Shown here one piece after another: positions 2,803 through 27,828 of a stretch of DNA of 64,000 nucleotides. The notes beneath the pieces are model-generated. The model searched no databases and was not told the DNA's origin. It saw nothing but the letters and a program-made list of their open reading frames with translations. Source of the stretch: Chitinivibrionales bacterium. GTDB taxonomy: Bacteria; Fibrobacterota; Chitinivibrionia; Chitinivibrionales; FEN-1185. A program made the position numbers and the translations under genes. The stretch lies in the NCBI GenBank assembly GCA_035516255.1, contig DATJAL010000013.1:1-64000 (forward strand), read 5' to 3'. Every line of letters starts with the position of its first letter. Positions within the stretch are counted from its first letter, which is position 1.

Positions 2803-4932
2803 ATGAAAAAATCCATGATCACCATTCTCACCTTCTCGCTCTTTGGTCTTGCCACGAATGCATTCGCCCAGAATAGTATCAAAGTTTCCTCGCTGGACGG
2901 CAGTGCAAAGGTGCAGCATGCCGGAAAAAAAGACTGGGACAATCTTTCGGCGGGCGCGCCGGTGCTCGACAACGACATGATCGAGACCTATTTCCAGACC
3001 CGGCTCGTGATGCAGCTGGGCAAGGGGAATTCCGCGATTCTGGGCCCGAACACCAAGGCGCTGGTCGGCGTCCGCATGCCGCTGCAGCAAAACGGCGAAA
3101 CAGTACTCAACATCAGCCTGACGCTTTTCAGCGGAGGCTGTTTTATAAAGGCAGTCTCCAAATGCCATGTCAGTATATTCACGTCAAATGCGATCGGTGA
3201 GACAGACAGCGGCTCGCTTTCCGCAACGCTGGATCTAAAAACCGGCGAGACCTCGTTTGAGGCCCTTGACGGCTCGGCCAAAACCAGGGCAATTTCCCAG
3301 GAAAAAAGCATAGCGCTTTTGCCCGGGCAGACCACCGCGATTTCCTCCGGAAAGGAGCCGACGCAGCCCCAGCAGATAACCGCGGGCCACGTTTCGGCGC
3401 TCAAGCGCCTTTTCGGCGAAAGTCCCATCGACTCCGGGCTCAGCGCCGCAGGGGTGAGGCCGGGCGCGGAGCAGGCTCCCGGGCCCTCGGTAGTTTCGCC
3501 GGGCATGGGACCGCAGCAGGCGCCGACTGATCAGACGAGATACAAACCACAGTTCAGCGAAAACAAAATCTGGGGCGCCATCCTTGACGACCAGGAAAAG
3601 AACGGCATTCACTATTCCTCGTTTGCCAAACCAGACGTTTACGACGAGCGGTGGTTTACCGTGGAGGAATCGAACGAGGCGGCGTTTGCGGCCGGCCATA
3701 CGTTCCCGCGGTTCATGCTCACGCCGTCGTTTTCGAGCCAGTATTTCGGCGCCGGCCTGCGGGTGCCTGTTGCCGCGAACCATACCGGTAAAATCGGCAT
3801 GTATAATTTTTCGTCCGCAAGCGGCGTGCTTGATCTGATCGATCATGTCACCCTGGGGCCGGTCGGCGATTCCACGTATCTTTCCCTCGGGCCCATCCAT
3901 GATTATACCGTCGGCAACGGGACCGTGGTGGACCATTTTAGCAACGGCAACCCGTATTCGCTTTTCCATCCGCTGGGACTTTTTCTGCAGGCCAGGCTCG
4001 GCGACTGGTGCCTGCAGGGGTTCAGCGCCGACGTGTCCTCGTTCACCATGGACGGCATATACCTTTCGTACGATCCGAACATCTATCATTTCGGCGCCGG
4101 TTTCTTTGTCGACGCAAACCAATACTACCAGGGCGGCGCCGACTCGATCGGATACCGGTTTGTCACGCTTCCCAAATCGGACTCGGCGACCGTGCTGCTT
4201 GACGCGGTGAACTACGCCCGCGTGTACCAGCTCGATTACGGCATAGACCTTGTCACCGAATATGATTTTCGGCTCAACCTTGCCGCCGAATTCGCCCAGA
4301 AGGTGGTCCAGGTCCATAACGACGGATATATTTTCAAGGGACCGATCGCCTCCCTCACCTGGAAGAACATCCTTGTAAAAGCCGATTTCATCGCCGAGGC
4401 CGGCCGCCTGGTTGCGGGTCAGTATAACGACGTCTACATGTCGAACCGGGCGCGCGTCGACACCGCGGGAGGCCATGACACCCTCATCACCCAGAACACT
4501 CTGCTTTCCCCCCGCAGGCGGTCGGGAAAAATCGAGTTTTTCTTCGGCCTGAGCCCGCACAAGGGCATCTCACTTGACGCATGGTACAAGCAGAACGTGT
4601 ACGGCAAATACCTTCTTGCCGCGGACACCAATTATACGTCGGCGGATTTGGACGCCGGGATCTCCCTTTCGGTCAATGACGGCCTGTGGAGCCCCATTAA
4701 ATACGGCTCGGTTTACTTTAGGCAGACGCACGGCGGGCTGTACCCGCCCCGGGGCCTGTTTCCGTCGTGGGGCACGCGTGCGGGATTTGACGTGGTCACC
4801 AACCCCATCCTGTTCGGCGTTGGTTTTGCAGCGGGTGCCTCGCTGTATTATCTTGACCTGAATTTCAACAACGCCGTTGATCCCTCCGATGACGTCATGG
4901 AATGCTATCTCGCCGTCAGGTACGGCTTCTGA
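2803..4932 (+). CDS. FecR-domain envelope protein with beta-rich C-terminal region
   Basis: The 709-residue product starts with a cleavable signal peptide (ending at about residue 22, NAFAQ). A FecR-like domain covers roughly residues 25-190: KVSSLDGSAKVQHAG, APVLDNDMIET, VMQLGKGNSAILGP. A Pro/Gln-rich linker lies near 215-245. The remainder is rich in alternating aromatic and polar strands with Tyr, Asp and Gly, and the last residue is Phe (VRYGF), as in outer-membrane beta barrels. It is therefore probably exported to the periplasm and anchored in, or forming, an outer-membrane structure. The function is not recognisable. The stop overlaps the nadC start by one base (TGATG), although the two roles look unrelated. 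Confidence 0.7.
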   Translation: MKKSMITILTFSLFGLATNAFAQNSIKVSSLDGSAKVQHAGKKDWDNLSAGAPVLDNDMIETYFQTRLVMQLGKGNSAILGPNTKALVGVRMPLQQNGETVLNISLTLFSGGCFIKAVSKCHVSIFTSNAIGETDSGSLSATLDLKTGETSFEALDGSAKTRAISQEKSIALLPGQTTAISSGKEPTQPQQITAGHVSALKRLFGESPIDSGLSAAGVRPGAEQAPGPSVVSPGMGPQQAPTDQTRYKPQFSENKIWGAILDDQEKNGIHYSSFAKPDVYDERWFTVEESNEAAFAAGHTFPRFMLTPSFSSQYFGAGLRVPVAANHTGKIGMYNFSSASGVLDLIDHVTLGPVGDSTYLSLGPIHDYTVGNGTVVDHFSNGNPYSLFHPLGLFLQARLGDWCLQGFSADVSSFTMDGIYLSYDPNIYHFGAGFFVDANQYYQGGADSIGYRFVTLPKSDSATVLLDAVNYARVYQLDYGIDLVTEYDFRLNLAAEFAQKVVQVHNDGYIFKGPIASLTWKNILVKADFIAEAGRLVAGQYNDVYMSNRARVDTAGGHDTLITQNTLLSPRRRSGKIEFFFGLSPHKGISLDAWYKQNVYGKYLLAADTNYTSADLDAGISLSVNDGLWSPIKYGSVYFRQTHGGLYPPRGLFPSWGTRAGFDVVTNPILFGVGFAAGASLYYLDLNFNNAVDPSDDVMECYLAVRYGF

Positions 4933-19238: not shown

Positions 19239-20219
19239 TTATTTCCCGGTCAACGGTTCACTCTTCCTTGTCTTAAAATCGATGCAGAAGCTTTCGTCAA
19301 GCGCCAGAATTTCCTGGAAAAACCCGTTGAACCCGAGCCGCTCGCAGTAATACTGCACCGTTTCGTATTCCCGCCGTGAAATGCCGCGACGCAGTTCGGG
19401 AAAATTGTCCGCCTTGAACATGGGCCGGAACTGCGCCATGAGGCTTATGAAAATATCGGCCGGATCGAATGTGGCGGCGAGGAATTCCAAGACTTTTTCG
19501 GAAAACGCCCTTCCCTCGGGCAACACAAGATGCCTAACGCACATTCCCCTGTACGCGATGCCGTCTTTATCCGTTTTGAGCGGCCCCACCTGGCGGAACA
19601 TCTCGCGTATGGCTGCCTGGTTGTTTTCCACGTAATCGGGCGCTTTACAATAGCGCATTGAGGATTCGTTTGACCCGTATTTCATGTCCGGAAGGTAAAT
19701 ATCAACCACTCCCCGAAGCGGCACAAGCGTCTCGGCCAGTTCATAGCCGCTTGAGTTCCAGACAACGGGAAGCCAAAGACCTTTTGACGCCGCGATTTTA
19801 AGCGACCGGAGAATGTTCGGCAAATAATGCGTGGGCGTCACGAAGTTGATGTCATGTACGCCCGTCTCCTGAAGCCAGAACATTTTCTCCGCAAGCTTCT
19901 CTTCAGAATAATGTTCTCCCTCGCCCTCCTGCGAAATCTGATAATTCTGGCAGAAGCAGCAGCGCAAAGAGCAAAAGGAGAAAAACACCGTGCCCGAGCC
20001 GCGCGTTCCCGAAATGGGAGGCTCCTCGCCGTGATGGGGGAAAATGCTTGAGATAAAAAGTTCAGAACCCGCGCCGCAGATTCCTTTCTTTCCCGCACGC
20101 CGGTCTACGCTGCATTTGCGGGGACAAAGCATGCAGGGAGATGCAAGAGATTCGGCGGCGGAGATGCGGGAGTTCCAGTCGGATTCGGAAAGAAAGGTGT
20201 AGGAGGCGGGATGGATCAT
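19239..20219 (-). CDS. Radical SAM protein, PflX-like (pyruvate formate-lyase activase family)
   Basis: A 326-residue Fe-S protein. The SAM-binding motif CSLRCCFC lies at Cys83, Cys87 and Cys90. An N-terminal Cys cluster CMLCPRKC plus GICG (Cys29, 32, 36, 48) is characteristic of the PflX/COG1313 group and is absent in PflA itself. The barrel segments INFVTPTHYLP, PVVWNSSGYE, VDIYLPDMKYG and RHLVLPEG match that group. Members are annotated as putative glycyl-radical activators, but the target is generally unknown. No glycyl radical enzyme gene is seen in this window. Confidence 0.87.
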   Translation of the reverse strand: MIHPASYTFLSESDWNSRISAAESLASPCMLCPRKCSVDRRAGKKGICGAGSELFISSIFPHHGEEPPISGTRGSGTVFFSFCSLRCCFCQNYQISQEGEGEHYSEEKLAEKMFWLQETGVHDINFVTPTHYLPNILRSLKIAASKGLWLPVVWNSSGYELAETLVPLRGVVDIYLPDMKYGSNESSMRYCKAPDYVENNQAAIREMFRQVGPLKTDKDGIAYRGMCVRHLVLPEGRAFSEKVLEFLAATFDPADIFISLMAQFRPMFKADNFPELRRGISRREYETVQYYCERLGFNGFFQEILALDESFCIDFKTRKSEPLTGK

Positions 20220-20638: not shown

Positions 20639-22300
20639 TTATTCTTTATCCTTAAAATTATCCAGCGGTATAAAATCATTCTCCGCATCCGCCTGTTCCG
20701 TCGGCGCCGCGGGGATTGCCGTGAACCCGTACTGGTCCGGGTGTTCCGAGATGATGAGCAGCGCGATGACGCGCGGGATGTATTCGTTGGTCTCCTCGGC
20801 GAGGTATCCCATTCTGTAAATGTACCAGAAGTCGCGGTTGCGCATGGGATTGTCGATCTTGCGCAGCGCGCCCACCACGCGGGCCTCGCCCGCGTTGTAG
20901 GCGGCCATGGCCAGCATCACCGAGCTTTTGCCGCCGAAGATGGCGATGAGCTCCCTGAAATATTTCGCCGCGGCGTGCGTTGCCTTTTCCGGCTCGCACC
21001 GCTCGTCGACGCCGCCTTCGATCTTCAGGCCGTAGCGCCTGCCGGTCTCGGTCATGAACTGCCACATGCCGCGCGCGCCGGCGTGCGACAGGGCGCGCGG
21101 GTTGAAACCGCTCTCGAGCATGGAGACGTAGGCGAGGTCTTCGGGCAGGTTGGCGGCGTGGAAAATGCGCCTGATCATGGAAAAATATTTTTCCTTGCGG
21201 CCGATGTACTTTGCGATGGTGGCGTGCAGGTCGCCCGAGTAAACGCCGATATGGTACCGCACGCGGTCCACCATTTCCTTGGGGATGTGGTAGTCGGTCT
21301 CGCCGAACCGCATGAGCACCTCGTCGATGGTCTTTTCGAGCGGGTCGGAGTAGAACTTGCCGAAGTCGTTTTCGTGCACGTCTTTCTTCACCGCGGAAAG
21401 CTGCGTCTTTGCCTTGTCAAGTTCGTTGATGAGCGAATCGAGCTTGCGCCGGTTGGCGTCCGGGTCCTTGTTGGCGGCCTCGATCTGCGCCTCGTAGGCG
21501 TCGAGCTTGGCGCGCAGCGAAAGGCCCTTTGACAGAAGCGACTTGTACTGGTATGCCCGTATGGCGAAAAAAGAAATGGCCGTTATTGAAACGGCCACCA
21601 CGGCGCACAGGATGACGACCCATTGTTTCGACGACCGCCGGTGCGCGACCGCCGCGGTGCGCAGCATTGACGCCTGCGTGTCGCTGATCTTGCCCCGTTC
21701 GATGATCTTGTCAACGCGCTTCTCGTCGCGCATGAGCTTCTGCATGTCGCTCGCGCCGAGTTTCTTCTCCAGGATTTTTTTTTCCATGTCCATGGTCTGC
21801 GACCCGCCGGAAAACCCCGCCTCCCTGGGCATCCTGAGCTTCACCTTGGTGATAAGCTCCTGGTCTTCCTTGCCCGTAGTCTCGGAAGGCGGCTTTTTGG
21901 CGTATTGCTGCATTTCGTCTTCCACGGTGCGTACGCTCGTCGATTCGGCCGACACCATGCCGGGTCTTGCGCCCGCCGAGAGGTCCGGCTCGGTCTCGGA
22001 CCTTATGAGTTTCAGCCGCGGGCCCGCTTTACCGAACCCGAGCATGTCGCCGGGCGAGAGCTCGCGCTCCCCCACCTTTTCCTCGTTGACGTATGTGCCA
22101 TTGGTGCTTTCGAGGTCCTGCAGGGTTATCCGATCGCCGTTTTTGTAAATGATGGCATGGTGGCCGGAAACGCTTTTTTCACTCGAATGGAGCGGCAACG
22201 TGTTCTGCGAGCTGCGGCCCACGCTGATTGCGCCGTCGGAAAGAAGGTAGCGGCGGCCTTTTTCAATGCCCTGGATGACTTCGAGATAATGGTAGCTCAT
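20639..22300 (-). CDS. FHA domain - transmembrane - lytic transglycosylase fusion
   Basis: A 553-residue protein joining a phosphothreonine-reading domain to a peptidoglycan-cleaving domain. Residues 1-105 are an FHA domain: ISVGRSSQN (Arg29), SVSGHHAII (His47) and LESTNGTYVN (Asn67). A charged cytoplasmic linker follows. One transmembrane helix spans about 227-249 (WVVILCAVVAVSITAISFFA). Residues 250-310 are coiled-coil-like. The SLT/MltD-type domain (370-490) carries SMLESGFNP with catalytic Glu396, AGARGMWQFM, EKATHAAAKYF and MAAYNAGEARV. The FHA part would be cytoplasmic and the transglycosylase periplasmic. It is the last gene of the 27345-to-20639 operon, 21 bp after the Ser/Thr kinase that could phosphorylate its FHA ligand. 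Confidence 0.88.
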   Translation of the reverse strand: MSYHYLEVIQGIEKGRRYLLSDGAISVGRSSQNTLPLHSSEKSVSGHHAIIYKNGDRITLQDLESTNGTYVNEEKVGERELSPGDMLGFGKAGPRLKLIRSETEPDLSAGARPGMVSAESTSVRTVEDEMQQYAKKPPSETTGKEDQELITKVKLRMPREAGFSGGSQTMDMEKKILEKKLGASDMQKLMRDEKRVDKIIERGKISDTQASMLRTAAVAHRRSSKQWVVILCAVVAVSITAISFFAIRAYQYKSLLSKGLSLRAKLDAYEAQIEAANKDPDANRRKLDSLINELDKAKTQLSAVKKDVHENDFGKFYSDPLEKTIDEVLMRFGETDYHIPKEMVDRVRYHIGVYSGDLHATIAKYIGRKEKYFSMIRRIFHAANLPEDLAYVSMLESGFNPRALSHAGARGMWQFMTETGRRYGLKIEGGVDERCEPEKATHAAAKYFRELIAIFGGKSSVMLAMAAYNAGEARVVGALRKIDNPMRNRDFWYIYRMGYLAEETNEYIPRVIALLIISEHPDQYGFTAIPAAPTEQADAENDFIPLDNFKDKE

Positions 22301-22321
22301 AGATCCTGTATGATAAAACGG

Positions 22322-24673
22322 TTATCCAAAATATCTATTCACCAATCCCTCCAGAATACCGTACCCCGACACCGCTCCCATGTCCCGCAGCGCCCTGCAC
22401 AGGTCCTGCTCCATTGCCGCGGCCGATTCGTAGCGGTCTTCGGCCTTCTGCGCCATTGCCCTTGCGATCACCGCGATGAGCGGCTTGGGAACGGCGTCGG
22501 CGGCCAGCAGCTTGTATTGGCCGGTTGACTTTGCGGAAAGAAGGGCCGGCAGCTCGCGCTGCGGGAACGCGCGCTGGCCCGCCAGGAACTCGTAGAGCGT
22601 GGCGCCGAGCGCGTAGATGTCCACGCGGCCGGTCATTTCCTTGCCGGTCATCTGCTCGGGCGCGAGGTACGGCAGCGTTCCCACCACAAGGCCGCTTTCC
22701 ATGGTGTGCAGGCTCACGTCCTGGGGGCGGGCGATGCCGAAATCGGTGAGCTTGACGCGGCCGCTCTTGCTGAGCATGATGTTGGCCGGCTTCAGGTCGC
22801 GGTGGATCACGCCCTTGTACGACGTGCCGTAAATCACGGCGGTCTTTTTGTGCGCGTATTCGAGCGCGCGGCACACGAGCGCGCCGACGGCCGCGGTCTC
22901 CTGCGGGGTAAGCACCCGGCATTTTTTCTGCACGTCGTCCATTGCCGCGCCCGGCACGTATTCCATCTCGATGAACGGGAGGCCGTACCACTCGCCCACG
23001 TTGTAGAACTGCACGATGTTCGGGTGCTGGAGCTTTGACAGAATGCGAATCTCGGTCTCGAAGCGCGCGAGCAGGTTTTCCGACTGGCCCGGCTTGATCA
23101 CCTTCACCGCGCGGAAAACCTCGAGCCGCGGCTGCCATACGAGATACACGTCGGCCATGCCGCCGCTGCCGAGGAACTTCACGATCTTGCCGCCGCTCAA
23201 GTCCTGGAACTTCGCAGCAAAAGGCGCAGCGGCGCCTTTTGCTGCGGCAGGACGCTCGGCAACGGTGGAGCCTGTAAAGGTCTCATCGATTTTGTCCGGC
23301 GCCTGCGCAGGCGCCTCGGTGAGCTGCTCGCTCACATGCTTTGCCGTTGCAGACCGGGGAAGCTCGCGGATGAAATCCTGCGCCTGGGGCGGCGAAAGCG
23401 AGTCTTTGTCCGCTGCCGGCGGCACGTCAAACGAAAGCGCCGCGGTCTCCACGATCGAGGGAACGCCCTTTGCCGCGGCAAGGTACAAAACGGAGAACAT
23501 CCACGCGTACACCTGAAAGGCCGGGTTCCAGAAATAATGGAACTTTCCAAATGCGAAAACGCCGGCGCCCGCGCTCAGCGCGACCACGGCAAACCCCGCG
23601 GCTAGCATCAGCGCCTTCCGCTTTGACGGCACCACGAGCGCGAGCCCGGGAAAAATGAGCAGCGCGAGAAGGATATTGACAAGCGCGCCAGCGGCGCCGG
23701 CGGTACGGACCCACGATCCCTGCAGAACGTCCATTGCCGAAGTGGCCCATAGTTCAACGCCCGGGAACTGCGGCCCGGCCGGCGTGGTGAAGAAGTCTGC
23801 GCCGGCAAGCGCGTCGGTGATGCCGACGAACACCAGCTTGTCGCGCAGCAGCGCCGGATCAACCGCGCCGTTGAGCACCTGCACCGCGGAAATGGTCTTT
23901 ATAGTGCCCGGCCTTCCGCGGAAATGCAGGAGCGCGCTGCCGGCATAGGCCGACAGCGGAACATGCCTGTCGCCGACAATGACCTGCGGCTTTCCGTCGA
24001 ATACGAACCGGTCAGGCTTGACGCCCATGTACGCGGCGGCAGCGCACAGGCCGAACGACGGATAATACTCGTCGCCGGCCTTTATCACGTGCACGATCTC
24101 GCGCAGCTTCTGGTCGACCTTGTTCGTGGTGACGTTGATGGCCCCGCTCCGGCCGGCCGACGCGGCAAACGCGCCGTCGGATGCGTCCATCCGGTTTGCG
24201 GAAAAAAGACGCAGGCCGCCGAGTTTCTCCTTGCTTGTCACCATCAGAAAGCGCTGCCGGAACACCTCCGGCGGCACAACGGCGCCGGTGTCGCCCGGCT
24301 GGAAGCTCGCGCGGAACGGCAGGAGCAGATTGTTTACTTTTGCGAACGCCCTCGCGAGGCTGTCGTTTCCCTGAAGGTCCTCCTGTTTGGGCGGAAAAAT
24401 GATGTCGAGGGCGACCACGCGCGGCGAGCAGGATTGCAATTTATCAACGAGCCGCGCGATGGCGGCGCGCGGCCACGGCCAGGCGCCCATGGCGCTGATG
24501 CTCTGCGCGTCGACGCCCACGATCACGACCGAGTCGCACGCGGCCGATCCCCTGGACAGCGCGAAATTCATGTCGTACAACACGTTGTCGACCAGCCGCA
24601 GCGGCCGCACAAACATCAGCGCCGCGAGAAGCAGCGTCCCGATGCCGAGCACCGCGGCCTTTGCCTTGTTCAT
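22322..24673 (-). CDS. CHASE2-domain receptor serine/threonine protein kinase
   Basis: A protein of about 783 residues. A first membrane helix (AVLGIGTLLLAALMFV) is followed by a periplasmic CHASE2 sensor of about 300 residues (VDNVLYDMNFALSRG, VIVGVDAQSISAMGAWPWPR, VVALDIIFPP, VFVGITDALAGADFF). Several transmembrane helices follow (LVNILLALLIFPGLALVV, LMLAAGFAVVALSAGAGV, AWMFSVLYLAAA). After a variable linker comes a complete Hanks-type kinase: GSGGMADVYLV, AVKVIKPG, HRDLKPANIM (His624), DFGIARP and GTLPYLAPEQM. All catalytic residues are intact. The start at 24673 overlaps the FecR gene stop (ATGA), so translation is coupled. It would sense an envelope signal and phosphorylate cytoplasmic targets. 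Confidence 0.92.
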   Translation of the reverse strand: MNKAKAAVLGIGTLLLAALMFVRPLRLVDNVLYDMNFALSRGSAACDSVVIVGVDAQSISAMGAWPWPRAAIARLVDKLQSCSPRVVALDIIFPPKQEDLQGNDSLARAFAKVNNLLLPFRASFQPGDTGAVVPPEVFRQRFLMVTSKEKLGGLRLFSANRMDASDGAFAASAGRSGAINVTTNKVDQKLREIVHVIKAGDEYYPSFGLCAAAAYMGVKPDRFVFDGKPQVIVGDRHVPLSAYAGSALLHFRGRPGTIKTISAVQVLNGAVDPALLRDKLVFVGITDALAGADFFTTPAGPQFPGVELWATSAMDVLQGSWVRTAGAAGALVNILLALLIFPGLALVVPSKRKALMLAAGFAVVALSAGAGVFAFGKFHYFWNPAFQVYAWMFSVLYLAAAKGVPSIVETAALSFDVPPAADKDSLSPPQAQDFIRELPRSATAKHVSEQLTEAPAQAPDKIDETFTGSTVAERPAAAKGAAAPFAAKFQDLSGGKIVKFLGSGGMADVYLVWQPRLEVFRAVKVIKPGQSENLLARFETEIRILSKLQHPNIVQFYNVGEWYGLPFIEMEYVPGAAMDDVQKKCRVLTPQETAAVGALVCRALEYAHKKTAVIYGTSYKGVIHRDLKPANIMLSKSGRVKLTDFGIARPQDVSLHTMESGLVVGTLPYLAPEQMTGKEMTGRVDIYALGATLYEFLAGQRAFPQRELPALLSAKSTGQYKLLAADAVPKPLIAVIARAMAQKAEDRYESAAAMEQDLCRALRDMGAVSGYGILEGLVNRYFG

Positions 24674-25662
24674 TCCTCGTTCTCCCCGAACATCTCGGCG
24701 GCCCGCTTGTCGCGCTCCATGTTCCATTTCACCCACGAGTCGGCCTCGTCCTTCTTGAACGGCTCGACCGCCTTGGGCTTTCCCTTCTTGTCAATTCTTA
24801 TCTTCTGCATGTCTCGCACGATCGACACCCACTGCTCCAGGCTCACCTCGGACGGGCCCGGCACCTCGCTGGGGCCGCTCACCTCGCCCGGCTCGCCGCC
24901 GGACGCCGCTTTCATCGAGGGGTTGTTCTTCACCGCGACCTCGCCGTTGTACACCTTGACTTCCGATGAGCTGTCCTTGTCCACCGTGGCCTCGTACACC
25001 GTGCCGTGCACGCCCGCGATGGCGGTGGGGAGCTCGAGCTCGAACCGGCTCAGCTTGTCGCGGAACTGCTTCATCTTGGTCCACACCGAGCCGAGGTTGA
25101 ACCCCATTTTCGTTTCCCCCGCGGTCGACCCCGTGTCGCGGAACGCGTCGATGCTCGCGCGCGTGTTTTCCTTGAGCCTCACCACGGTCTCCTTGTTGAT
25201 GATCATCTCCACCCGGCCCGTTGCCAGGGTCTGCACCACGTCGCCGGGAAACACGATCGTGTTGGGAACGAGTTTCTGGCGCGCCTTGCCGCCCTTTGCG
25301 ATGAGCACCGCGTCGCCCTCCACGTAGGTGACCACGCCCTGCATGGCCTGCACCCTGCGCTCGAATACCTGGCTTGCCGGCGCCGCGGGCTTTTCGCTTT
25401 TGTAATCCGGATTGTGAAGCACGAGGGCGTCGCCCGGATGGATGACGTTGAGGTCCTTGAGCGACGGGTTGTCCTTGAGGACCGCCTTTGCGAGGTCCGC
25501 GCCCCAGTAGCCGTAGTAGTCGATGCAGACGAGGCTGACCGTTTCCCCTTTCTTGACCGTGTGCTTGAAGGTTTCCTGCGCAGGGTCGATTTTCTGCGCG
25601 GCAACGGCATTGTGGAGAAACGCCGACACGACAACGAGCGCGATGAGTCGATTGAGTTTCAT
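24670..25662 (-). CDS. LysM and FecR domain periplasmic protein
   Basis: A 330-residue exported protein. After a signal peptide (NAVAAQ near residue 22), residues 32-84 form a LysM-like glycan-binding repeat (FKHTVKKGETVSLVC, DNPSLKDLNVIHPGD). Residues 105-245 form a FecR domain (AMQGVVTYVEGDAVL, FPGDVVQTLATGRVEM, VVRLKENTRASI, GVHGTVYEATV, VKVYNGEVAV). A Ser/Pro/Glu linker and a Lys/Glu-rich helical tail close the protein. FecR domains in this setting commonly pair with CHASE2-type sensors. The gene is coupled to the CHASE2 kinase by an ATGA overlap, suggesting that it presents the signal, perhaps peptidoglycan-bound, to the sensor. Confidence 0.82.
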   Translation of the reverse strand: MKLNRLIALVVVSAFLHNAVAAQKIDPAQETFKHTVKKGETVSLVCIDYYGYWGADLAKAVLKDNPSLKDLNVIHPGDALVLHNPDYKSEKPAAPASQVFERRVQAMQGVVTYVEGDAVLIAKGGKARQKLVPNTIVFPGDVVQTLATGRVEMIINKETVVRLKENTRASIDAFRDTGSTAGETKMGFNLGSVWTKMKQFRDKLSRFELELPTAIAGVHGTVYEATVDKDSSSEVKVYNGEVAVKNNPSMKAASGGEPGEVSGPSEVPGPSEVSLEQWVSIVRDMQKIRIDKKGKPKAVEPFKKDEADSWVKWNMERDKRAAEMFGENEE

Positions 25663-25677
25663 GCCGAAATCCCCTGG

Positions 25678-27345
25678 TTAAATGGTAAAGGTGAAACGGG
25701 CCTGATGCCCGGAAATGGTCGCGTCCGAATTTATTGCAATGACAAATGACTGATGGTTTTCGACCGAAACATCCACAGGCTTGCCGGATGATAAAATTCC
25801 ACAGGCCGACAGATCTTTATCAAGAAAGTCCTCAAGCATGCCCGCAATTTCCCTCTTTGATTTCTGAGAACCATATTCCAGGATTTTCATGCCGGACAGC
25901 CTTGCGATGCGGTTGACAAGGAGGTTGAAGCAAAGGCTCCTGAAGTTGTCCGCAACGCTCTCGGGGCCGGCCACGGTGACCGCCTTGTCAAGCGATGCCT
26001 TTTCAAGGGTTTGTTCAAACAGCGTGAGCCCCATGGCCGCGGCCTCATCCGCCACCTCCCGAGAAACCGCTTGGGAAAAAACCGGCGTGTCCGTAAACAC
26101 GCTTTCCACTGGAAGCTTTTGCTCCTTTGCGCAAAAAGGGTCATTGTGGCCGACGATCATCTCCGCCCACCGGACGGCGGCATACCATTCGGAATTCATT
26201 CCCGATGCGAGCGAAGGCGCGCAGAGACACAGGCACCGTGAGGCGGTATTGTCCCTGAATTTTTTATAGGGCAAAAACCGCACGTCGTCGAAGAAATGGG
26301 AGATGCTCTTGCGGGAAGAGATGTCCTTTAAAAGCGGGTCATCCATGTCAAGCGGAGCAACCACGACGCATTTGAAGCGCTCGGCAGCGGCGCACAACGC
26401 CGCCAGCGCCTCCATGCTCGCGTTGGTAAACGTCACGCCGTGGTCCCACACCACGAGGTCGGGCGCCGAGCCTGCTTCCATGCAGGCGCCGAGCGCTTCG
26501 TCGAGCCTGTCCTGCATGTCTTGTGACGGGCATGAGATGACGCCGAGGGTGACTTCTTTTTCTCTTCCGATCACCTTTGCAAGCCGGGCGAGTCCCTGCC
26601 ATGACAAAAATCTGGACTTGAAGAAATCCTGCGATGAAACCGCCGCTGCCTGGGCGTTGAGTTCCTGATTCAATACGGTTAGATAAGCCGAGATTTTCGA
26701 TTTGTCAAACTGTTCCTCTCCTGCCGATACGGATTGAAACAAGGCATCAGTAAGGCCCGGCTGACTGCTGCCTGATTCCTTGCCCGTCTGCGGCTTCACG
26801 TCAACCATGGACAAAATCCGGTCAACGGAAGATCCCCGCGGCTTTGCTTTTGGCGCATCGACAGGTTTTTGCTGACGACCGCCTTTGGCCGGTGAAAGCA
26901 TGGATATAATTCTTGATGATTCATCAGCCGGCAGTCCTGCTTTTTTTATCAAGGCAACTGCATCATTCACGCTGATTTTCCCGTCAAGCATTTGCTGCAG
27001 CGCCAAACAAGCCCTTGTCCACGGCGCAAATACGGGAACATTTGCCGCGATGCTCTCCGCCGAAAAATCCTTCATCGTCTTCACAGGATATTCAACGAAA
27101 ACCTGTTTTTCACCGTCAATCAGCATATTTTTCGCATTGCCGGAAAGCAAAATCCCCGCGGACGCCATGAACTCGTTCCATTCCGCAATGTGAACGGAAA
27201 CCGGCTTCTTCGAAACAAATCCGAGGTCGGAGCAGACAAGAATGTTCCACGGTTCAAGGTCAATGGCAGCGGGCTTTTTGACCGGTGCAGGACCGAGCGA
27301 AACGGAAAAGGAATCGATTTGGGATTTGTCTTTGTTCACGGGCAT
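25678..27345 (-). CDS. TssB-TssC-like contractile sheath protein (fusion)
   Basis: A 555-residue cytoplasmic protein. Residues 1-130 resemble the type VI secretion small sheath subunit TssB/VipA: EPWNILVCSDLG, KPVSVHIAEWNEFM, VEYPVKTMKDFSAESIAANVP (fits the DFsPexVAxQVP signature) and ALQQMLDGK. A disordered linker (about 140-215) leads into a region resembling TssC/VipB: FFKSRFLSWQGLARL, SAPDLVVWDHG, AALCAAAERFKCVVVAP, EWYAAVRWAEMIVG, MGLTLFEQTLEK, and a C-terminal helical segment with LCFNLLVNRIARLSGM. In T6SS the two are separate genes, whereas here one chain carries both. It is the first gene of the operon with LysM-FecR, CHASE2 kinase and FHA-transglycosylase. Assignment rests on motif recognition only and should be confirmed by profile search. 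Confidence 0.55.
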   Translation of the reverse strand: MPVNKDKSQIDSFSVSLGPAPVKKPAAIDLEPWNILVCSDLGFVSKKPVSVHIAEWNEFMASAGILLSGNAKNMLIDGEKQVFVEYPVKTMKDFSAESIAANVPVFAPWTRACLALQQMLDGKISVNDAVALIKKAGLPADESSRIISMLSPAKGGRQQKPVDAPKAKPRGSSVDRILSMVDVKPQTGKESGSSQPGLTDALFQSVSAGEEQFDKSKISAYLTVLNQELNAQAAAVSSQDFFKSRFLSWQGLARLAKVIGREKEVTLGVISCPSQDMQDRLDEALGACMEAGSAPDLVVWDHGVTFTNASMEALAALCAAAERFKCVVVAPLDMDDPLLKDISSRKSISHFFDDVRFLPYKKFRDNTASRCLCLCAPSLASGMNSEWYAAVRWAEMIVGHNDPFCAKEQKLPVESVFTDTPVFSQAVSREVADEAAAMGLTLFEQTLEKASLDKAVTVAGPESVADNFRSLCFNLLVNRIARLSGMKILEYGSQKSKREIAGMLEDFLDKDLSACGILSSGKPVDVSVENHQSFVIAINSDATISGHQARFTFTI

Positions 27346-27456: not shown

Positions 27457-27828
27457 ATGAACAGAAGGAATTTTCTCGCCGCATCGGCGGCCGTCGCGCT
27501 CGCGTCATGCGCACGCATGGACAAGCGCGCCGCCAGGTATGACGAACACCAATGCCCCTTTTGCACCCAGAAAGCGGGCGTATGCTCCTACTGCGGCGGC
27601 AGCGGTAAGTGCGGTTTCTGCCACGGCAAGGGAAAGCGGAAGACCGTTTCGCCCAACGTCCCCGAAGAAAACATAAAGCCGGGGTTCTACGAGGAGCAAT
27701 GCCCCTACTGCAAGGGCAGCGGCGTGTGCCGCTACTGCCACGGCAACGGAAAATGCTGGGCCTGCAAGGGCACCGGCAAAGTTGACAACTGGGATTTCTA
27801 CGAACAATACAAGCAGGCCGCCAAGTAG
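27457..27828 (+). CDS. Lipoprotein with DnaJ-type CxxCxGxG zinc-finger repeats
   Basis: A 123-residue protein. Its N-terminus MNRRNFLAASAAVALASC combines a Tat-like RRNFL with a lipobox (Cys18), so it is likely exported folded and lipidated. The mature part has paired Cys motifs: CPFC, CSYCGGSGKCGFCHGKGK, then CPYCKGSGVCRYCHGNGK and CWACKGTGK. This is the DnaJ-like zinc finger layout with two half-sites, presumably binding two zinc ions. Export of such a finger is unusual, since DnaJ itself is cytoplasmic. It precedes gpmI by 30 bp on the same strand. The function is unknown, with metal binding or envelope chaperone activity plausible. Confidence 0.8.
   Translation: MNRRNFLAASAAVALASCARMDKRAARYDEHQCPFCTQKAGVCSYCGGSGKCGFCHGKGKRKTVSPNVPEENIKPGFYEEQCPYCKGSGVCRYCHGNGKCWACKGTGKVDNWDFYEQYKQAAK

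What the first reader, a model, noticed from the sequence alone, without database searches (positions are those of the whole stretch)
20639..27345. Operon linking a contractile-sheath-like protein to a CHASE2 kinase, a LysM-FecR protein and an FHA-transglycosylase
Four co-directional genes, with gaps of 15 bp, -4 bp (ATGA) and 21 bp, encode in order a TssB-TssC-like protein, a periplasmic glycan-binding FecR protein, a membrane Ser/Thr kinase with a periplasmic sensor, and a membrane protein with a phosphothreonine-reading FHA domain inside and a peptidoglycan-cleaving domain outside. In known T6SS, a Hanks kinase (PpkA) and an FHA protein control assembly, and a transglycosylase opens the wall. 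Here all these parts occur in one compact unit without Hcp, VgrG, baseplate or ClpV. A signal-controlled envelope-opening or sheath-anchoring system is a reasonable hypothesis.
Basis: partly seen in the sequence, partly recalled or inferred. Interest (0 to 1): 0.85.

Follow-up and report, generated by a model that had tools for sequence, protein, structure and literature searches.

The report
T6SS control operon with fused sheath
In a chitin-degrader-type bacterium of the phylum Fibrobacterota, four adjacent genes appear to form an add-on control unit for the cell's own harpoon-like type VI secretion system: a sensor kinase, a wall-cutting enzyme with a phosphate-reading domain, and an unusual single-chain version of the harpoon's two sheath proteins.

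Summary
Four co-directional genes (27345 to 20639, minus strand; gaps 15, -4 and 21 bp) encode a single-chain TssB+TssC-like protein, a FecR protein with a weak LysM, a CHASE2 Ser/Thr kinase and an FHA-TM-SLT transglycosylase. The order is conserved in 5 genomes of two families.

The stand-alone reading fails. The same genome encodes TssA-G, Hcp, TssK-L-M and ClpV on other contigs. FHA-SLT orthologues sit within T6SS clusters in relatives. In one of them the FecR-kinase-FHA/SLT operon is divergent from tssA-tssB-tssC-hcp. In the order, all 32 T6SS+ genomes carry FHA-SLT, and 0 of 8 T6SS- genomes carry an intact one (one fragmentary exception); there are two within-genus contrasts.

The fused sheath protein belongs to a 15-member family, found only in T6SS+ genomes that also have canonical TssB and TssC. 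All 15 keep a linker motif (hDxIhxM) that aligns with TssC's N-terminal ClpV-binding helix.

Best reading: a T6SS licensing module (sensor kinase, phosphothreonine reader, local wall opening) plus an accessory sheath-like protein that ClpV probably recognises. Its exact role (sheath-end ring or regulator) is inferred. It is a new variant of a known kind, with no direct experiment behind it.

The parts
25678..27345 (-). P0001, 555-aa single-chain TssB-TssC-like protein (P-type of the fused family)
   Evidence: Pfam T6SS_VipA above and VipB just below cut-off; PDB profile hits to TssB/TssC chains; hhalign; 15-member family
26896..27258 (-). TssB/VipA-like part (residues 30-150), preceded by a 30-residue N-terminal arm of the same length as the linker of canonical TssB
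   Evidence: hhalign to TssB profile E=6e-9 over residues 30-150; low-confidence AF2 model's best PDB match is M. xanthus TssB, Foldseek prob 0.98; arm lengths
26797..26826 (-). Junction motif VDRILSMVDV (residues 174-183), conserved hDxIhxM in 15/15 fused proteins; aligns with the TssC N-terminal helix that binds ClpV
   Evidence: invariant D175, I177, M180; alignment to TssC N-termini of PDB 5mxn/5urw and of in-phylum TssC; shuffled-sequence control; ClpV-binding role of that helix from PMC5048182
25681..26709 (-). TssC/VipB-like part (residues 213-555), lacking a segment of about 25-30 aa that the long-type relatives and canonical TssC keep
24670..25662 (-). P0002, periplasmic FecR-domain protein (330 aa) with hydrophobic N-terminus and weak LysM-like stretch
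   Evidence: paired with the kinase gene in relatives
22322..24673 (-). P0003, CHASE2-transmembrane-Ser/Thr kinase (783 aa); HRDLK, DFG and APEQ motifs intact
20639..22300 (-). P0004, cytoplasmic FHA - TM - periplasmic SLT lytic transglycosylase (553 aa); FHA S45/H48/N67, catalytic-type E396 and AAYNAG motif kept in 21/21 homologues
   Evidence: co-occurrence with T6SS
19239..20219 (-). Radical-SAM (4Fe-4S) protein, conserved just downstream of the module in most relatives; 419 bp downstream here; possible fifth member

Best explanation
The operon is a satellite module of the cell's own type VI secretion system. Proposed working: P0002 (FecR/LysM-like) and the CHASE2 domain of P0003 read the state of the periplasm. 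The kinase then phosphorylates a threonine on a T6SS component. The cytoplasmic FHA domain of P0004 binds that phosphothreonine and so holds its periplasmic SLT domain at the assembly site, where it opens peptidoglycan for the membrane complex. P0001, a single-chain TssB-TssC protomer, docks on the TssB/TssC sheath or on its end at that licensed site, and ClpV recognises it through the motif at the junction of its two halves. Shown here: domain make-up, conserved order, a T6SS in the same genome, strict co-occurrence of FHA-SLT with T6SS apart from one doubtful fragmented genome, cluster linkage in relatives, the homology of P0001 to both TssB and TssC, and conservation of the ClpV-helix-like motif. 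Inferred: every interaction, the order of events, and whether P0001 is a structural end-ring or a regulator.
For: T6SS core in the same genome: TssA/B/C/Hcp and TssE/F/G on C14, TssK/L/M on C31, ClpV on C2. P0004 orthologues lie within T6SS clusters in G037, G025, G022, G026, G029, G036 and G017. In G011 the FecR-kinase-FHA/SLT operon is divergent from tssA-tssB-tssC-hcp. FHA-SLT occurs in 32/32 T6SS+ genomes of the order and in 0/8 T6SS- ones at E<=1e-45; in 39/53 versus 0/115 across 168 phylum genomes. Two within-genus contrasts: G036/G010 and G035/G030. The CHASE2 kinase (E<=1e-120) occurs in 16 genomes, all T6SS+. The fused family occurs in 15 genomes, all with separate TssB and TssC. Canonical and fused proteins are separated by one branch (support 91/94). 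Junction motif 15/15, chance about 3e-4 per shuffled stretch, aligned with the TssC N-terminal helix; that helix recruits ClpV (PMC5048182). FHA and SLT key residues kept in 21/21 homologues. Known precedents: PpkA-Fha control and recruited MltE (PMC10433429).
Against: In this genome the operon is not physically next to the T6SS genes. Many relatives have the three-gene module without P0001 (G002, G006, G007, G009, G011, G032), and the long-type fused genes lie at loci unrelated to T6SS. Co-occurrence counts are not corrected for phylogeny beyond the two within-genus contrasts. G005 (83% complete, 750 contigs) has the FecR gene and FHA-SLT fragments but no TssC or TssK was found. The AF2 model of P0001 is poor (pLDDT 53). 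No experimental data.
Confidence: 0.62

Rival explanations
1. The FecR-kinase-FHA/SLT part is a T6SS licensing module as above, but P0001 is not built into the sheath: it is a soluble mimic that binds ClpV, TssA or sheath subunits and restrains or tunes assembly.
For: P-type sequences evolve fast (27-46% identity, long branches) and have lost a TssC segment; long-type members lack the N-terminal TssB linker in 6 of 7 sequences, which is needed for normal contraction (PMC5797969); the ClpV-helix-like motif is the best conserved element.
Against: P-type keeps an N-terminal arm of 30-31 residues, as long as in canonical TssB (29-32), and the C-terminal strands, which a pure decoy would not need.
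Confidence: 0.25
2. A stand-alone, signal-controlled envelope-opening or sheath-anchoring system independent of the T6SS.
For: Compact operon on its own contig region; order conserved; P0001 has its own TssB and TssC halves.
Against: T6SS core genes in the same genome; module next to or inside T6SS clusters in relatives; near-perfect co-occurrence with T6SS; no tube, tip or baseplate partner of its own.
Confidence: 0.06
3. The FecR-kinase-FHA/SLT module is a general peptidoglycan or envelope-stress system that merely shares ancestry with T6SS-bearing lineages.
For: SLT, FHA and kinases have many non-T6SS roles; co-occurrence is partly phylogenetic; G005 may have the module without T6SS.
Against: Within-genus joint absence in g10 and g22; placement inside or beside T6SS clusters in eight genomes; absent from all 115 phylum genomes without T6SS at E<=1e-45.
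Confidence: 0.1
4. P0001 is a decaying relic of an old tssB-tssC gene fusion carried along in the operon.
For: Low identity, below-cut-off VipB score.
Against: Open frames of full length in all 15 genomes, family-wide invariant residues, retained gene order across genera and families.
Confidence: 0.04

Closest known systems
T6SS contractile sheath TssB/TssC (VipA/VipB)
   Same: P0001 aligns with TssB then TssC along nearly its whole length; N-terminal arm length and ClpV-helix-like motif kept.
   Different: One chain instead of two; very divergent; a TssC segment lost; coexists with canonical TssB and TssC in all 15 genomes.
T6SS threonine phosphorylation pathway (TagQRST-PpkA-Fha1-PppA, P. 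aeruginosa; described in PMC10433429)
   Same: Periplasmic sensor protein, membrane Ser/Thr kinase and FHA reader tied to a T6SS.
   Different: CHASE2 kinase and FecR protein instead of PpkA and TagQ/R; the FHA domain is fused to a lytic transglycosylase; no PppA phosphatase in the operon.
T6SS peptidoglycan hydrolases MltE (EAEC, housekeeping, recruited by TssM) and TagX (Acinetobacter), per PMC10433429
   Same: Cell-wall cutting near T6SS assembly is the expected role; SLT fold as in lytic transglycosylases.
   Different: Here a dedicated enzyme, encoded with T6SS genes in relatives and joined to an FHA domain across the inner membrane.
Single-protein sheaths of phages, pyocins and eCIS
   Same: One polypeptide per sheath protomer.
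   Different: Sequence is TssB+TssC, not phage sheath; single origin next to canonical T6SS proteins in one bacterial order.

Membership tests
TssB/VipA small sheath subunit | Match to the family profile | tested here: met
   PF05591 28.7 bits vs cut-off 24; hhalign E=6e-9; NCBIfam TIGR03358 far below its equivalog cut-off (29.6 vs 97)
TssC/VipB large sheath subunit | Match to the family profile | tested here: inconclusive
   P0001 alone 22.6 bits vs cut-off 27; with homologues E=3e-10, sister subfamily E=1e-39 and above Pfam cut-off
TssC/VipB large sheath subunit | N-terminal ClpV-recognition helix | tested here: met
   Motif conserved 15/15 and aligned with TssC N-termini; binding itself not tested
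T6SS sheath subunit | Separate TssB and TssC chains in a 1:1 complex | tested here: not met
   Both parts in one 555-aa frame
T6SS sheath subunit | Polymerises into a contractile sheath | not testable with these tools
   Needs biochemistry or microscopy
Complete T6SS locus | Hcp, VgrG, baseplate, membrane complex and ClpV in the same gene cluster | tested here: not met
   None in the operon; TssA-G, Hcp, TssK-L-M and ClpV found on contigs C14, C31 and C2 of the same genome; VgrG and TssJ were not searched for in the own genome
T6SS PpkA/Fha phosphorylation pathway | Hanks kinase with intact catalytic motifs plus FHA protein linked to T6SS | tested here: met
   HRDLK/DFG intact, FHA key residues in 21/21; cluster linkage and co-occurrence
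T6SS PpkA/Fha phosphorylation pathway | Kinase phosphorylates the FHA protein or a T6SS component | not testable with these tools
   Needs experiment
SLT lytic transglycosylase | SLT fold with catalytic Glu (ES motif) and AAYNAG-type motif | tested here: met
   PF01464 83 bits vs 21.3; E396 and AAYNAG in 21/21

The most novel reading that the evidence does not exclude
P0001 is a dedicated single-chain sheath protomer that forms the terminal or base ring of an otherwise two-protein T6SS sheath, recycled by ClpV, and is placed by a phosphothreonine-gated transglycosylase that opens the wall only where a T6SS is licensed. This would be a new sheath component and a new direct coupling of phosphorylation to wall opening.
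Probability: 0.22. Interest if true: 0.82.

Novelty: new variant of a known kind. Interest (0 to 1): 0.62.

Why it matters
How T6SS opens the wall and how kinase/FHA signalling reaches the machine are open points. Dedicated lytic transglycosylases are described as an exception in T6SS clusters (PMC10433429). A membrane protein with a phosphothreonine reader inside and a transglycosylase outside, present in every T6SS+ genome of an order, makes that link directly testable. The protein make-up of the distal sheath end was reported as unclear (PMC5813253). A second, single-chain TssB-TssC protein that keeps a ClpV-helix-like motif is a concrete candidate for a minor sheath component and shows that the TssB/TssC pair can exist as one chain.

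Tried and rejected
Stand-alone contractile system: rejected, since the genome has its own T6SS genes and relatives place the module in T6SS clusters. Apparent further fusions in G161, G164 and G065: read as canonical tssB and tssC in one frame with stops between them; not used. AF2 of P0001 with only four sequences was poor (pLDDT 53); its Foldseek hits support only the TssB half, and none reaches E<=0.001. Promoter and terminator scans were uninformative. Literature searches found no TssB-TssC fusion and no CHASE2/FHA T6SS paper in the held library.
Full report
OBSERVATION. The four genes are present as described on the minus strand of the window: 25678-27345 (555 aa), 24670-25662 (330 aa), 22322-24673 (783 aa, ATG overlapping the previous stop) and 20639-22300 (553 aa), with gaps of 15, -4 and 21 bp. 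Pfam gives T6SS_VipA (above cut-off) and VipB (just below) in one chain, then FecR, CHASE2+Pkinase, and FHA+SLT. LysM in the second protein is weak and below both libraries' cut-offs. The kinase keeps HRDLK, DFG and APEQ; the last protein has one transmembrane stretch at 224-250 between FHA and SLT, so FHA is expected inside and SLT outside.

ORIGIN. Close homologues of the first protein lie in Chitinispirillaceae MAGs (JAFGIW, JAFGNB, JAFGHA), and the genome search lists their genomes as the same order as the window's assembly, so it belongs to Chitinispirillales, phylum Fibrobacterota. A type VI secretion system was mentioned for Chitinispirillum alkaliphilum (PMC4814513).

GENE ORDER. The same four genes in the same order, usually followed by a radical-SAM gene, occur in G001, G039, G027 and G026 (families f1 and f3). 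G031 shows the first two at a contig end. G021 lacks the middle two. G037 has the first gene with a soluble kinase. In G002, G006, G007, G009, G011 and G032 the FecR-kinase-FHA/SLT trio occurs without the sheath-like gene.

T6SS IN THE SAME GENOME. tssA-tssB-tssC-hcp lie at C14:5130-9570, tssE-F-G at C14:54393-57684, tssK-L-M at C31:194016-200165 next to another Ser/Thr kinase and a PEGA protein, and ClpV at C2:65603-68149 (1161 bits, cut-off 885). VgrG and TssJ were not searched for. The genes are scattered over several contigs, which explains why the window alone looked like a system without the other parts.

LINK OF THE MODULE TO T6SS. In relatives the FHA-SLT gene lies within the T6SS cluster (G037, G025, G022, G026, G029, G036, G017). 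In G011 the FecR-kinase-FHA/SLT-radical SAM operon is divergent from tssA-tssB-tssC-hcp. Across the order, strong FHA-SLT orthologues (E<=1e-45) are in all 32 genomes with TssC or TssK and in none of the 8 without; across 168 phylum genomes 39/53 versus 0/115 (Fisher values ignore shared ancestry). Genera g10 and g22 each hold one genome with both T6SS and FHA-SLT and one near-complete genome with neither, two contrasts that are less open to shared ancestry. One doubtful case, G005 (83% complete, 750 contigs), has the FecR gene and FHA-SLT fragments without detected TssC/TssK. The CHASE2 kinase at E<=1e-120 is in 16 genomes, all T6SS+; FecR and kinase are usually adjacent.

THE FUSED SHEATH PROTEIN. 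Fifteen genomes of the order encode one: eight of the window's P-type (532-561 aa) and seven of a long type (573-609 aa). All fifteen also have separate canonical TssB and TssC genes or, in G011 and G015, at least a canonical TssC. P-type and long type align end to end (hhalign E=1e-29 over 516 columns). Long type matches canonical TssC over 424 columns (1e-39) and TssB (1e-14); P-type gives 3e-10 and 6e-9. A profile of all fifteen hits solved TssC chains (down to 1e-33) and TssB chains (down to 1e-15). In a tree of the TssC part, canonical, long-type and P-type sequences each form one side of a branch; canonical versus fused 91/94, so a single origin of the fused family is favoured but branches are long.

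MOTIF AND ARMS. Only eight columns are invariant in all fifteen; three (D175, I177, M180) lie in the otherwise variable junction, motif hDxI[L/M]xM. It occurs in 15/15, against about 3e-4 per shuffled stretch. [quoted passage not shown] LLDEILS in 5urw. In-phylum TssC N-termini read ILEFMDI or IYQTMNL, and the EAEC TssC1 peptide that binds ClpV contains LFEKINL. A looser pattern written to cover those TssC helices fits only 3 of the 15 fused proteins, so the match is a shared core and not identity. That this motif binds ClpV here is inference. P-type proteins have 30-31 residues before the first core strand, as canonical TssB (29-32); six of seven long-type proteins have only about 11-13 (open-frame lengths leave little room for more). 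The length of this linker is critical for contraction in V. cholerae (PMC5797969).

STRUCTURE. Foldseek's best match is M. xanthus TssB (prob 0.98, E 0.08), with VipA also listed; the TssC half is not recovered. This is weak support and is not relied on.

MECHANISM. Established knowledge: PpkA phosphorylates Fha1 or TssL to license T6SS, TagQR sense the envelope, MltE is recruited by TssM for wall opening, and ClpV recycles sheaths through the TssC N-terminal helix (PMC10433429; PMC5048182). The operon places a periplasmic FecR protein, a CHASE2 kinase, an FHA reader and a transglycosylase in the same chain of events, with reader and cutter in one molecule. The simplest reading is envelope signal, kinase, phosphothreonine, FHA binding, local SLT action, T6SS insertion. 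P0001 is most likely an accessory sheath-like protein acting at the same site; end-ring versus regulator is undecided.

NOVELTY. The parts are known kinds. The single-chain TssB-TssC paralogue beside a canonical T6SS, and the FHA-transglycosylase as a near-universal T6SS partner in an order, were not found in the held library. A search of phyla beyond this one was only possible through plasmids and phages; the three plasmid loci opened showed no fusion.

Noticed in passing
window 27457-27828 (+): 123-aa lipoprotein-like protein with DnaJ-type CxxCxGxG zinc-finger repeats, divergent from the operon; homologues sit at the same place beside the module in several relatives (L023, L026, L053, L054).
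   Followed up: partly
window 19239-20219 (-): Radical-SAM protein that follows the FHA-SLT gene directly in most relatives; may belong to the module.
   Followed up: partly
G000 C31:190887-193681 (L036): A second Ser/Thr kinase (670 aa) and a PEGA-domain protein divergent from tssK-L-M; the kinase-PEGA-TssK group is conserved in relatives, so these T6SS have a further kinase input.
   Followed up: partly
L028, L029, L030, L031, L038, L039, L040: Long-type fused TssB-TssC genes lie alone at loci without T6SS genes (next to a hisD-like gene in f2, a transporter-like gene in f5).
   Followed up: partly
L047 (G026 C193): A second, divergent T6SS cluster with its own TssA-B-C-K-L-M and an FHA-SLT homologue in the same genome.
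   Followed up: no
window 2803-4932 (+): 709-aa secreted protein with a FecR-like N-terminal repeat region, unrelated to the operon.
   Followed up: no
L002 9663-10100 (-), G000 C14: Small 145-aa protein just upstream of tssA, also present beside tssA in G001; function unknown.
   Followed up: no
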